Positions 1 to 5,700 of a DNA stretch of 64,000 nucleotides are shown in pieces. Positions within the stretch are counted from its first letter, which is position 1; each line of letters opens with the position of its first letter. Under the pieces are notes generated by a model, which saw only the letters and a program-made list of their open reading frames with translations, made no database searches and was not told where the DNA came from. A program made the position numbers and the translations under genes. This stretch comes from Glycomyces algeriensis (GTDB lineage Bacteria > Actinomycetota > Actinomycetes > Mycobacteriales > Micromonosporaceae). The DNA lies in assembly GCF_027622855.1 (NCBI RefSeq), contig NZ_JAPZVR010000009.1, positions 47,865-111,864 on the forward strand, in the 5' to 3' direction.

Positions 1-110
1 CATCCCCCCCGCCCGCCCCCCCCCCCCCCACACCCCCCCCCCCCCCCCCGCGGGGGGGGCCCCCCCCCCCCCGCCGGGGGGGGGGGGGGGGGCGCCCCCC
101 CGGTCGGGGT
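1..110. other. G/C homopolymer runs, probable assembly edge
   Basis: Long uninterrupted C and G runs with almost no A or T. No gene or structure can be read. This looks like a contig end or poly-G sequencing artefact rather than biological sequence, and bases here should not be trusted. The real sequence seems to begin around 105-120, where normal composition returns. Confidence 0.6.
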
Positions 111-125
111 TTCCGGTGGTGCGGT

Positions 126-292
126 CTAGGGCCTGTCCTGTGCATCAGACCGGTCGTTATCCGGCCCGTTTGCCCGCACGCTGCGTTGTCGGCCCGCCAG
201 ATACAACACCGGTATCTGGCGGGCCTTCCGCCTTGCGAGCGAACAAACGGACTCGGATACCGCCGCTCCCTGATGCACAGGACAGGCCCTAG
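126..292. mobile_element. MITE-like palindromic element (167 bp)
   Basis: Perfect 23-bp terminal inverted repeats at 126-148 and 270-292 (outer core GGGCCTGTCCTGTGCATCAG). The interior continues as an imperfect palindrome, with another strong pairing of GGCCCGCCAGATA around the centre. There is no room for a transposase. A CTAG (or minimal TA) occurs at both ends, compatible with target duplication as in IS5- or IS630-like elements. Removing the element and one target copy rebuilds a continuous sequence in which the neighbouring gene still ends at TAG. Family assignment is inference; a folded RNA role is an alternative. Confidence 0.75.
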
Positions 293-1592: not shown

Positions 1593-1652
1593 GGCCCTTT
1601 CGGTCGTCGGTCATGGCGACCATTGTGCCGCGCCCGTGCCAGGGCATAGGTG

Positions 1653-1684
1653 CGGCCCGGGTCGTTGACCTCGACACCGGGCCG
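1653..1684 (-). terminator. GC-rich hairpin downstream of permuted tRNA
   Basis: Perfect 8-bp stem CGGCCCGG/CCGGGCCG with a 16-nt loop, about 50 nt after the 5' half of the candidate permuted tRNA on the minus strand. It lacks a T-tract. It may terminate the tRNA transcript or be a structural part of a flanking RNA. Confidence 0.45.
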
Positions 1685-1733
1685 CCATGTGCCACATAGT
1701 GGCCGCTGCGATCTGCGGTAGCCGTTGAGTCTG

Positions 1734-1814
1734 CTGCTAGCACCGTGCTCTGCCATTGAGCTACCGCCGCATGTGGTGCGGCGGGAGGGATTCGAACCCC
1801 CAACATCAGTGACC
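1734..1814 (-). tRNA. Candidate circularly permuted tRNA (3' half before 5' half)
   Basis: Read on the minus strand, the order is: anticodon 3' stem CACTG (1811-1807), variable loop ATGTT, T stem GGGGG, T loop TTCGAAT, T stem CCCTC, acceptor CCGCCGC and encoded ACCA (to 1774); a 3-nt linker CAT (1773-1771); then acceptor GCGGCGG (1770-1764), TA, D stem GCTC, D loop AATGGCA, GAGC, A, and anticodon 5' stem CGGTG (1745-1741). The two halves match as one tRNA: 7/7 acceptor pairs, 5/5 anticodon-stem pairs (one G-U), T stem 5/5 with one G-U, and the expected U8, A14, A15-U48, G18G19, A21 and A26. No ordinary tRNA can be built in the usual order. The anticodon cannot be read because the join point is unknown; possible joins give UAG, AAG, AGG or AGC. 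Position 3:70 is G-C, arguing against normal Ala identity. Confidence 0.65.
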
Positions 1815-2027
1815 TAGAGGAACTACTCGCGGATACGCGCGGCGTGGCGAATGCTGAAGCTGGAGCGAGAGTCTCAGTTTCGGCGGAGAAACGGATCCGT
1901 ACGCTGCGGGGTTAAATTCCGCAGGGGACCGTGTTCCCGCCTGATACTCGGACTGAATCTCAGTTTCAGCGTGTTCGGCGCTTTTCGGGCGCCACCCCTG
2001 TCGCTCAAAACAGGGGGGTCTGTGGGC
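1815..2027 (-). other. Structured non-coding leader before the permuted tRNA
   Basis: Gene-free stretch on the 5' side of the tRNA 3' half. It holds a hairpin CTGCGG/CCGCAG (1904-1909 with 1919-1924), a hairpin GGCGC/GCGCC (1977-1981 with 1989-1993), and a 14-mer TCTCAGTTTCGGCG repeated with one mismatch at 1872-1885 and 1958-1971. CTAG occurs next to both tRNA half-ends. It could be one part of a permuted self-splicing RNA, but I could not identify a group I or II core by eye. Confidence 0.4.
1995..2016 (-). terminator. Hairpin after the 244-aa protein gene
   Basis: Stem CCCCTGT/ACAGGGG with an 8-nt loop, 12 nt after the stop codon of the minus-strand gene ending at 2028. It is followed by a second small hairpin rather than a T-tract. 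Likely intrinsic terminator of that gene, which would separate it from the tRNA transcript. Confidence 0.55.
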
Positions 2028-2762
2028 CTATTCGCCGAGCAGGTAACCGAAGACCTTGGCGCCGATCTTCTCGTCGACGACCTCGGTCCCGTTGGCCTCC
2101 TCCCGGGCGAACTTGACGGCGATCTGGAGCTTCTCGAGCCGCTCGGAGAGCTGCGCGACCCGCTTGGCAGGGGCCGCGCCCGAGAACTTCACGGTCGTCC
2201 AGTACCCGACCGGGATGTCCTCGTAGTACACCTCGACCTGCGCCGGGTGCTCCTCGGTCGCCTCGGCCTTGACGTGGTTGCGCGGGATCTTCTTGGTGCG
2301 CACCGTTTTCACCGCGTCGGTCGCGAAGGCGTCGGACGCGTCGTTGTACGTCCACGACTCGCCCGCGTCGAGCACCGGCAGGGCCTTGACGAATGCCTGC
2401 AGCTCCGCGAGCTGCTTCTCCAGGAACAGGAGGTAGGTGACGGGGACGTCGGCGACGAGCACCTCACCGTCCACTGTGATGTCAGCGGTGGCGAGCGCGT
2501 TCGTGCGGTCCTTCGTGGCCGTGACGTCGAACAGCCGGGTCATCGCCGCGGACACCTCGCGCAGCTGCTCCTCGACGCGGCGCTGCACCTTCGTCGACTC
2601 GGGCGGCAGCTGCTCGCCCTCCTCGTCCTTCGGCTGGTAGGTCCGGGAGATGCCGGACAGCAGCGGCGCCTTGGCGAGCTCGCGCCCGGCGTCGCCGAGC
2701 GCACGCGCGGCCTTCGCCTTGACGCTCTTCTCGATCGCGATGATCTGGTTCAACTTGGTCAC
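2028..2762 (-). CDS. Conserved 244-aa cytoplasmic protein of unknown function
   Basis: The GTG start at 2762 is preceded by a GAGGG ribosome site; the longer upstream reading is out-of-family sequence. 244 aa, soluble, mixed alpha/beta, rich in Glu and Lys. The N-terminal helix (TKLNQIIAIEKSVK) and the segment SWTYNDASDAFAT are recognisable from a widely conserved actinobacterial family without known function, also seen in phage-like contexts. No catalytic motif is visible. Monocistronic, with its own downstream hairpin. Confidence 0.65.
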   Translation of the reverse strand: MTKLNQIIAIEKSVKAKAARALGDAGRELAKAPLLSGISRTYQPKDEEGEQLPPESTKVQRRVEEQLREVSAAMTRLFDVTATKDRTNALATADITVDGEVLVADVPVTYLLFLEKQLAELQAFVKALPVLDAGESWTYNDASDAFATDAVKTVRTKKIPRNHVKAEATEEHPAQVEVYYEDIPVGYWTTVKFSGAAPAKRVAQLSERLEKLQIAVKFAREEANGTEVVDEKIGAKVFGYLLGE

Positions 2763-4033: not shown

Positions 4034-4210
4034 AACCATCACGCGCGCAGAGAGAACACCCAGGTCAGACCAGTGGTGTTCAGGCGTTTCGCGAAGGGGT
4101 ACTAGGCTGGACGAAGATCCCGCGCCGCCCGAAATGACGGGTTCGTCGCGGCGCTGCGGCGAGTGCGAACGCCGTGCGGGAGAGCGGTCGACGGTTGGAC
4201 GGAGGAGCAG

Positions 4211-4948
4211 ATGATCACGCGATTGGCCGAGTCCCTCGGGTACCGGGTGCTTGAGGTGCAGGACGGGGACGGCACCCTCTCAGTGGGCGGCCACGACGGG
4301 GCGAGCGCGCTCCGCGTCGGCTGGAGACCCCTCATCGTCGAGGGCTATACCGGTTCCGGCTCGATCGACCGCTTCGCGATCCGCACCCGCGACGCGGCCT
4401 TCCGCGGGTCCCTGCGCGACCTGCGCGGGCGCCTGCGCCACGCCACCCGCGACACCGACCCGGTCGAGCTCGCGCGGCCGATCCTCGGCCTCCTGCAGCC
4501 CGGCCACTACGGAGTCCGGATCTGGCGCGACGCGAACGTCCACATAGAACCGTTCGGCGAGAACGGCACCGCCTGGTGGTACCCGTACGAGCCCATCGGC
4601 ACCGAGGGCACCGCCGTCATCCCCACCGACGTGTGGCCACCCCGCGACGAGGAGACCATCATCGGTTACGTCGACGCCATCGAGGACGGCGACCGACCGC
4701 TCGCGGTCATCCTCCGCTCCGAACCGCCCGGCGACGAGCAGGACTGCGCGTCGTTCCTCATCGACGGCCACCACAAGCTGGCCGCCTACCGGCGCACCGG
4801 CATCGCCCCCCACTTCCTCGACATCGCCCGCCTCGCCGACCGCCGGCCGTGCCCGCCCGACGACCTCCGCGATGTCATCGACGGCGACGCAAAACTCCAG
4901 CAGTCCGCGGCGAACCTCATGCGCTACCTGGAGGACCGCCGCAACTGA
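4211..4948 (+). CDS. DGHHK-motif protein, ParB/SerK-like fold candidate (paralogue 1)
   Basis: 245 aa, ATG at 4211 chosen because GGAGGAG lies 4 bases upstream. The C-terminal part contains LIDGHHKLAAY. DGHH/DGNH motifs mark nucleotide-binding ParB/sulfiredoxin-like folds such as serine kinase SerK and DUF1015 proteins. The block PILGLLQPGHYGVRIW, PNVHIEPFG, VIPTDVWPP and the DGHHK motif are all repeated in the next gene, which is a tail-to-tail paralogue. The exact reaction is unknown. The fold assignment is inference from the short motif. Confidence 0.55.
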   Translation: MITRLAESLGYRVLEVQDGDGTLSVGGHDGASALRVGWRPLIVEGYTGSGSIDRFAIRTRDAAFRGSLRDLRGRLRHATRDTDPVELARPILGLLQPGHYGVRIWRDANVHIEPFGENGTAWWYPYEPIGTEGTAVIPTDVWPPRDEETIIGYVDAIEDGDRPLAVILRSEPPGDEQDCASFLIDGHHKLAAYRRTGIAPHFLDIARLADRRPCPPDDLRDVIDGDAKLQQSAANLMRYLEDRRN

Positions 4949-5055: not shown

Positions 5056-5700
5056 TCAGCAGGACTCGATCACCACGCACACCGGATCACGTTCGAGCGC
5101 AAGGTAAGCCGCGAGCTTATGGTGCCCGTCCAGCAGGTAGTGCGCCTCCGACTCCGGGTGCGTGACCAGGATCAGCGCCGGTTGCGCCCGCTCGTCGATC
5201 ATCCGGTCCCGGTACGCCGCAACAGCCGCCTTGTCCGGCGGCGGCCAATGATGCGTCGGGATGATCGTGTGGCCGAAGCTCGGAATGTCGCTGTCGGCGT
5301 ACCAGCGCGTCTCCTTGCCGGTCTGCACCGCCCGCACATGGACGTTCGGCATGGTCCCGACCCAGATCCCGTACCGGCCGGGCGCGAGCAGCCCCAGCAG
5401 CGGACGCAGCGGTGCCACCGGATCGTCCTCAGGCTCGACGTGCCGCACCCACTGCCGCAGCACGTCCCACTCGTGCGGCTCGACCCACGTCTGTGGACGG
5501 TGCAGCGGCTCGTCGTCCGGTTGCGGCGCAATACGACGGGCCAGCCGCATGATCGAACCGCCGCCATCATGGCCGTCACGCGCGATCGGATCCCCGGCGA
5601 GCTTCAGCGTGACCCGATCGGGACCAGCGTCGAAGTCGACGACCCCGAGACCGTCCAGCACCTCGACGCGGTGAACGGGGAGCGGAAATTCGGAGGGCAT
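5056..5700 (-). CDS. DGHHK-motif protein, ParB/SerK-like fold candidate (paralogue 2)
   Basis: 214 aa. Same layout as the convergent gene ending at 4948: LLGLLAPGRYGIWVG, PNVHV, a WYADS segment, IIPTHHWPPP, then LLDGHHKLAAY near the C-terminus. It ends IESC. The paralogues face each other across ~107 bp, so the pair probably arose by inverted duplication. The conserved His-His-Lys of the motif would be the key residues if the protein is a nucleotide-using enzyme. Function unknown. Confidence 0.55.
   Translation of the reverse strand: MPSEFPLPVHRVEVLDGLGVVDFDAGPDRVTLKLAGDPIARDGHDGGGSIMRLARRIAPQPDDEPLHRPQTWVEPHEWDVLRQWVRHVEPEDDPVAPLRPLLGLLAPGRYGIWVGTMPNVHVRAVQTGKETRWYADSDIPSFGHTIIPTHHWPPPDKAAVAAYRDRMIDERAQPALILVTHPESEAHYLLDGHHKLAAYLALERDPVCVVIESC

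What the first reader, a model, noticed from the sequence alone, without database searches (positions are those of the whole stretch)
1734..1814. Candidate circularly permuted tRNA gene in a bacterium
The tRNA's 3' half (anticodon 3' stem through encoded CCA) lies before its 5' half (acceptor through anticodon 5' stem), separated by only CAT. All four stems pair between the halves (acceptor 7/7, anticodon 5/5 with one G-U) and conserved tRNA residues are all in place, which two unrelated fragments would not show. Permuted tRNAs are known in some algae and archaea, where a bulge-helix-bulge endonuclease joins them, an enzyme bacteria lack. If real, this organism must have another way to make it.
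Basis: partly seen in the sequence, partly recalled or inferred. Interest (0 to 1): 0.92.

Follow-up and report, generated by a model that had tools for sequence, protein, structure and literature searches.

The report
Tandem tRNA-mimic RNA beside DUF7873
What looks like a tRNA gene with swapped halves is one arm of a conserved RNA that imitates tRNA, encoded right after a gene of unknown function in many soil bacteria and in viruses of bacteria; it resembles the known bacterial Y RNAs but sits beside a different partner gene.

Summary
On the minus strand of window 1741-1811, a tRNA 3' half (T arm, acceptor strand, ACCA) is followed by CAT and the matching 5' half. The halves covary, so the fold is selected. 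It is very unlikely to be a tRNA gene: no 7-nt anticodon loop is seen, and the outer ends continue as a conserved stalk helix. In relatives the acceptor end is a loop of 5-42 nt, and 72 of 169 modules lack NCCA. No tRNA endonuclease or RtcB was found in the genome. The topology (T arm, acceptor hairpin, D arm, stalk) is that of the bacterial Y RNA YrlA, Rfam's best match here (E 9e-6, below its gathering score). Unlike known Y RNAs it is not beside Ro60, which was not found in this genome, but follows a DUF7873 gene. Permuted tRNA-like modules, often two in tandem, follow DUF7873 in 50 of 51 cellular and 59 of 71 viral loci and in 79 of 80 loci from named genomes. Some phage copies lie inside tRNA arrays. 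I read it as a Y-RNA-like tRNA mimic with a new partner gene. Its function is inferred, not shown.

The parts
1741..1811 (-). tRNA-like module M2 (the finding): T arm, acceptor stem capped by the loop ACCACAT, D arm, anticodon-type stem
   Evidence: Rfam YrlA match at 1809-1742; model R1 77.3 bits, but this copy is in R1's training set
1764..1777 (-). acceptor-end loop ACCACAT (1777-1771) and the 5' acceptor strand GCGGCGG (1770-1764)
   Evidence: in the 112 7-nt acceptor loops (near-duplicates included) C stands at loop position 2 in 106 and at position 5 in 111
1823..1848 (-). 5' strand of the M2 stalk (GCCACGCCGCGCGTATCCGCGAGTAG)
   Evidence: pairs with 1691-1721; predicted consensus fold with changes on both sides
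1691..1721 (-). 3' strand of the M2 stalk (CTAC..GCGG..GTGGC)
1849..1881 (-). conserved linker between the two module sites (GAAACTGAGACTCTCGCTCCAGCTTCAGCATTC); its TTCAGC is predicted to pair with GCTGAA of 1953-1970
   Evidence: strict motif in 14 of 17 Glycomyces, 21 of 44 other cellular, 54 of 66 named-genome and 3 of 62 viral stretches; genus fold (the single-sequence fold, which starts inside this region, does not show that pairing)
1882..1941 (-). hairpin domain in the place where many relatives carry the first tRNA-like module M1
   Evidence: alignment with L005, L010, L012, L014 and L019, which have M1 here; fold
1953..1970 (-). 5' strand of the M1 stalk (GCTGAAACTGAGATTCAG)
1652..1685 (-). 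3' hairpin, loop AGGTCAA
   Evidence: GAGGTCAAC present in 17 of 17 Glycomyces stretches
2028..2762 (-). DUF7873 gene (GTG start, my reading), directly upstream of the RNA
   Evidence: PF25283 368 bits; AlphaFold model pLDDT 94, pTM 0.70

Best explanation
The locus encodes a structured RNA 3' of DUF7873 whose arm M2 is a tRNA mimic of the bacterial Y RNA (YrlA) type. A long stalk leads into an anticodon-type stem, and the T arm, a loop-capped acceptor stem and the D arm fold on top of it as in tRNA. The permuted order follows from this: the RNA enters and leaves at the anticodon side, and the acceptor end is a hairpin loop. Shown: conservation, pairing, covariation, frequent tandem modules, linkage to DUF7873. 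Inferred: that it is transcribed as an RNA of roughly 300 nt, that DUF7873 binds it (as Ro60 binds Y RNA), and that the tRNA-like arms dock or decoy proteins that recognise tRNA (modification enzymes, nucleases, PNPase), so that the pair tunes or protects tRNA or structured-RNA metabolism. No splicing into a tRNA is needed.
For: YrlA is Rfam's best match at the site, 34.7 bits, E 9e-6, and YrlA matches at E <= 0.01 occur in 8 of 17 other DUF7873 loci, 31-41 bits, in 7 of them over the whole model 1-114 (alignments of four). Model R1, built only from DUF7873-linked modules, finds modules at 33.9 bits or more in 27 of 30 Ro60 (TROVE) loci (my count from the table). Linkage: in Glycomyces the RNA and DUF7873 occur in the same 17 of 22 genomes and are both missing from the same 5. 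Modules follow DUF7873 in 50 of 51 cellular and 59 of 71 viral loci, in 61 of 64 viral loci by R1 (my count) and in 79 of 80 named-genome loci, the miss having only 123 nt downstream. Acceptor covariation. Genus-level covariation. Fold energy z -4.2. No other protein cluster spans viral and cellular loci. 26 of 71 viral loci have three or more ARAGORN tRNAs (my count; named phages), no control made.
Against: No transcript or binding data. The Rfam gathering score (69) is not reached, and 9 of 17 DUF7873 loci have no YrlA match at E <= 0.01. Ro60 is not detected in the own genome, so the known partner is missing. The basal part of YrlA is not matched in the window copy (model 23-86 only). All 17 Glycomyces M2 loops keep ACCAC, which is more tRNA-like than a plain loop needs. 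One search finds no module with 6 or more pairs in 11 of 123 stretches; L135 and L136 show none with R1 either. One of four named phage loci (Vibrio phage D491, L189) matches only weakly, 25.2 bits. The DUF7873 model gives no fold match that tells a function.
Confidence: 0.82

Rival explanations
1. A true circularly permuted tRNA gene: the precursor is circularised at the anticodon loop and cut at the acceptor end to give a mature tRNA.
For: All cloverleaf stems pair, D and T loop residues are in place, ACCA is encoded, spacer only CAT; permuted tRNAs with spacers of 1-74 bp, two of them with encoded CCA in Thermofilum pendens, exist in algae and archaea (PMC3978253, passages).
Against: No anticodon loop or strict bulge-helix-bulge in the predicted consensus; instead a conserved stalk. 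Acceptor loops of relatives lack NCCA in 72 of 169 modules. No PF01974 endonuclease or RtcB found in the genome. 48 RF00005 tRNA matches elsewhere. Often two modules in tandem behind one gene.
Confidence: 0.03
2. Debris of two tandem ordinary tRNA genes (tRNA-CAT-tRNA with outer halves lost) or an integration scar.
For: Junctions of ordinary tandem tRNAs do look permuted and give about 31 bits with R1 (G000 C12:226334-226421 lies across the tRNAs at C12:226292 and C12:226388).
Against: Conserved with covariation in 17 Glycomyces, across genera and phages; 71-81 bits with R1 in the 17 Glycomyces copies (two Glycomyces copies are in the training set); the flanks pair with each other.
Confidence: 0.02
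3. A cis-acting 3' UTR element of the DUF7873 mRNA, for instance an autoregulatory site that DUF7873 or a tRNA-binding protein recognises; no separate RNA acts in trans.
For: Fixed position shortly after the stop codon; no promoter-like site on its strand and no terminator-like site in 1500-2150 (consensus scans only).
Against: Size, two tRNA-like arms and a conserved linker resemble a stable RNA; modules of the same kind lie beside Ro60 genes, where Y RNAs are known as separate RNAs (PMC8394870, passages).
Confidence: 0.13

Closest known systems
YrlA / bacterial Y RNA (Rfam RF02553), partner of Ro60/Rsr
   Same: Order T arm - acceptor hairpin - D arm on a stalk; tRNA mimicry; best Rfam match at the site; R1 cross-detects Ro60-linked copies.
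   Different: Beside DUF7873, not Ro60 (TROVE not found in this genome; 29 of 55 DUF7873 genomes have no TROVE match); often two modules in tandem, in cells with a conserved linker; below Rfam's gathering score.
Circularly permuted tRNA genes (Cyanidioschyzon, green algae, Thermofilum)
   Same: 3' half before 5' half, short spacer, complete stem pairing.
   Different: No anticodon loop or strict BHB seen, no endonuclease found, acceptor end often without CCA in relatives, stalk conserved instead.
Permuted (two-piece) tmRNA (recalled)
   Same: Acceptor stem closed by a removable loop, 3' part encoded before 5' part.
   Different: Full D arm present; no tmRNA match at gathering score in the window. 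A tag reading frame was not looked for.

Membership tests
Bacterial Y RNA (YrlA) | tRNA-like domain in the order T arm, acceptor hairpin, D arm above a basal stem | tested here: met
Bacterial Y RNA (YrlA) | Rfam RF02553 gathering score (69 bits) | tested here: not met
   34.7 bits; of 20 Ro60 loci from related genomes 13 have YrlA matches at E <= 0.01, all only 32-49 bits, so the threshold is a weak test in this group
Bacterial Y RNA (YrlA) | encoded near Ro60 (TROVE) | tested here: not met
   no PF05731 match at E <= 0.001 in the own genome; in the 6 of 22 Glycomyces genomes with TROVE it lies on other contigs
Bacterial Y RNA (YrlA) | basal stem that binds Ro60 | tested here: inconclusive
   window copy matches model 23-86 only; whole-model matches in 7 of 17 other DUF7873 loci; binding not testable
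Bacterial Y RNA (YrlA) | substrate of tRNA-modifying enzymes (D, pseudouridine), PNPase tether | not testable with these tools
   described for YrlA in PMC8394870 (passages)
Circularly permuted tRNA gene | 3' half before 5' half with matching stems | tested here: met
Circularly permuted tRNA gene | strict (3-4-3) bulge-helix-bulge at the junction | tested here: not met
   predicted consensus shows bulges of 2 and 0 next to the anticodon stem, then a 4-pair helix, then 2 against 13 nt; a prediction, and relaxed BHB forms are not excluded
Circularly permuted tRNA gene | tRNA splicing endonuclease in the genome | tested here: not met
   no PF01974 match at E <= 1
Circularly permuted tRNA gene | mature tRNA with anticodon and CCA end | not testable with these tools
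   needs small-RNA sequencing; no 7-nt anticodon loop can be read without assuming a junction

The most novel reading that the evidence does not exclude
DUF7873 and its tRNA-mimic RNA, often with two tRNA-like arms on one RNA, form a ribonucleoprotein of a new class that does not need Ro60, shared by actinomycetes and phages; the arms capture tRNA-acting enzymes, for instance to shield phage and host tRNAs from tRNA-cleaving defences.
Probability: 0.4. Interest if true: 0.8.

Novelty: new variant of a known kind. Interest (0 to 1): 0.6.

Why it matters
Bacterial Y RNAs have been sought beside Ro60. Here RNAs with the same tRNA-mimic fold are tied closely to another, uncharacterised gene family, in many actinomycetes and in phages, some of them inside phage tRNA arrays. 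That gives a gene family without a function a testable RNA partner, offers a large natural data set on tRNA mimicry, and removes a false lead toward bacterial permuted tRNAs. It also warns that scans for permuted tRNA genes in bacteria will meet this class.

Full report
WHAT IS THERE. The window lies in contig C34 of a 5.6-Mb genome. On the minus strand, 1811-1741, a tRNA 3' half, CAT and the fitting 5' half stand in that order. ARAGORN finds no tRNA in the window, and Rfam nothing at gathering scores.

IT IS CONSERVED AND COVARIES. A search with the 111-base site finds strong matches (E 1e-19 or better) in 17 of 22 same-genus genomes including its own; of the other five, four have only weak matches (E 3e-4 to 9e-4) and one none. 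Aligned without regard to structure, the 17 copies show changes on both sides with the pair kept in the anticodon stem (columns 71-138 and 72-137: 5 and 4 sequences), the acceptor stem (101-111: 4 sequences) and the stalk (53-162: 7 sequences); 13 of 54 predicted pairs have at least one such change, while many pairs never vary. Across genera and phages I located modules by T arm and D arm only: 182 modules in 123 distinct stretches. Of these, 162 pair all 7 acceptor positions and 7 pair six; the mean is 6.67 against 4.04 with partners swapped (maximum 4.32 of 2000). The 169 modules with at least six pairs carry 99 different acceptor sequences and lie in 112 of the 123 stretches, two in 55 and three in one of them; 11 stretches have none.

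IT IS PART OF A LARGER RNA. The outer ends do not form an anticodon loop in the predicted fold. The 5' half runs on into CTAGCAGCAGACTCAACGG and the 3' half is preceded by TTCCTCTAGGT; beyond these the flanks pair as a long stalk (GTAG/CTAC, GCG/CGC, CCGC/GCGG, GCCAC/GTGGC). The single-strand fold of 1640-1960 has z -4.2. Upstream, a second stalk (GCTGAA/TTCAGC) carries in many relatives a second permuted tRNA-like module, M1; in the window species and in L004, L007, L008 and L013 that place holds an unlike hairpin. Between the modules lies a linker that is conserved in cells: its strict motif occurs in 14 of 17 Glycomyces, 21 of 44 other cellular, 54 of 66 named-genome but only 3 of 62 viral stretches.

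THE NEIGHBOUR. The gene directly upstream (2762-2028, minus) is DUF7873 (PF25283, 368 bits). In Glycomyces, DUF7873 is present in exactly the 17 genomes with the RNA and in none of the 5 without. In 151 relatives, 55 have DUF7873; in a phylum-wide sample, 7 of 396, its own included. Modules follow the stop codon within 500 nt in 50 of 51 cellular loci (L112, with a partial DUF7873, has none) and 59 of 71 viral loci, against means of 0.0 and 0.1 in shuffles and 4 of 70 upstream. In 80 loci from named genomes (Glycomyces, Streptomyces, Actinomadura, Nocardia, Catellatospora and others, one Anaerolineae MAG; the best 80 of a capped list) 79 have modules, and 41 show two. With the covariance model R1 at E <= 1e-4, 61 of 64 viral loci have a match within about 1.1 kb downstream (my count; misses L135, L136, and L137, whose contig ends at the gene). 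DUF7873 is in 73 phage records, named after Vibrio (29), Gordonia (12), Rhizobium (12), Klebsiella (7), Serratia (6), Arthrobacter (3), Pseudanabaena (2), Rhodococcus and Microcoleus; I checked the RNA in four of them (two Gordonia phages, one Arthrobacter phage, one Vibrio phage): three clear matches, the Vibrio one weak at 25.2 bits. It is in 4 records of the plasmid collection. In 36 of 71 viral loci ARAGORN makes at least one tRNA call and in 26 three or more, up to 36 in one 10.7-kb locus; six of the 36 have only a call in the RNA region itself, and I made no control with other viral contigs. Gordonia phage Phendrix and Arthrobacter phage Mimi show the gene inside annotated tRNA arrays. 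Among the 12 largest clusters of other neighbouring proteins none spans viral and cellular loci.

WHAT IT IS. Rfam's YrlA model, the bacterial Y RNA, matches the site at 34.7 bits, E 9e-6, over its tRNA-like part. The gathering score, 69, is not reached; but Ro60-linked loci in related genomes also give only 32-49 bits (13 of 20 loci), and DUF7873-linked loci 31-41 (8 of 17 loci). The YrlA consensus has the same order: stalk, T arm, acceptor hairpin, D arm. R1, built only from DUF7873-linked modules, finds modules in 27 of 30 Ro60 loci at 33.9 bits or more, above the ~31 bits that a junction of two ordinary tandem tRNAs gives in this genome. So the modules are of the Y RNA kind, but the linkage is to DUF7873. 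Ro60 was not found in the window's genome, which is estimated 100% complete, nor RtcB. Across 151 genomes 29 of 55 with DUF7873 have no TROVE match, yet the two do co-occur (Fisher p 2e-7, not corrected for kinship).

WHY NOT A tRNA GENE. (a) No anticodon loop; (b) acceptor loops of 5-42 nt, mode 7, and 97 of 169 begin NCCA, so 72 do not; among named Streptomyces M2 loops are GCTCGA and TCTTGCAC; the 7-nt loops share C at position 2 in 106 and at position 5 in 111 of 112, near-duplicates included, which looks like a loop motif rather than only a CCA end; (c) no PF01974 endonuclease match, and 48 RF00005 matches elsewhere. What remains odd is that all 17 Glycomyces M2 loops keep ACCAC; cutting there by RNase P, giving a two-piece RNA with a CCA end, is not excluded.

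HOW IT MAY WORK (inference). YrlA is reported to be modified by DusA and TruB and to tether Ro60 (Rsr) to PNPase (PMC8394870, passages), and its tRNA-like domain has been proposed as a competitive inhibitor of an anticodon nuclease (PMC7790460, passages). By analogy DUF7873 would hold the stalk or core, and the arms would engage tRNA-recognising proteins. The DUF7873 model is confident (pLDDT 94, pTM 0.70 for the best of five) but has no informative match, so the protein's role is open. A cis-regulatory role for the DUF7873 mRNA is the main rival.

NOVELTY. No held paper names DUF7873, and six further searches list nothing that I recognise as this pair (listings). The 2014 paper on bacterial Y RNAs was not held and may include some of these RNAs. 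I rate it a new variant of a known kind.

Noticed in passing
window 1-110: A tract almost only of C and G runs inside a contig (C34 from 47865), unlike the sequence after it; possibly an assembly artefact.
   Followed up: no
window 128-290: Inverted repeat (arms 128-148 and 270-290, AGGGCCTGTCCTGTGCATCAG and its complement) around about 121 bases, MITE-like, next to the Sensor-domain gene; read by eye.
   Followed up: no
L039, L040, L046, L049, L051: Some Ro60 (TROVE) loci give two R1 matches, spaced 146-157 nt in L039, L046 and L049 and more in L040 and L051; several second matches (31-33 bits) are near the level of tandem ordinary tRNAs.
   Followed up: partly
L034, L058: Actinobacterial Ro60 loci with several ordinary tRNA matches close to the Y RNA.
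   Followed up: no
control genome Deinobacterium chartae: Has DUF7873, TROVE and RtcB matches; the RNA beside its DUF7873 was not looked at.
   Followed up: no
window 5056-5700 (-) and 4163-4948 (+): Two hypothetical proteins that both contain DGHHKLAAY toward their C-termini, no Pfam match at E <= 0.01.
   Followed up: no
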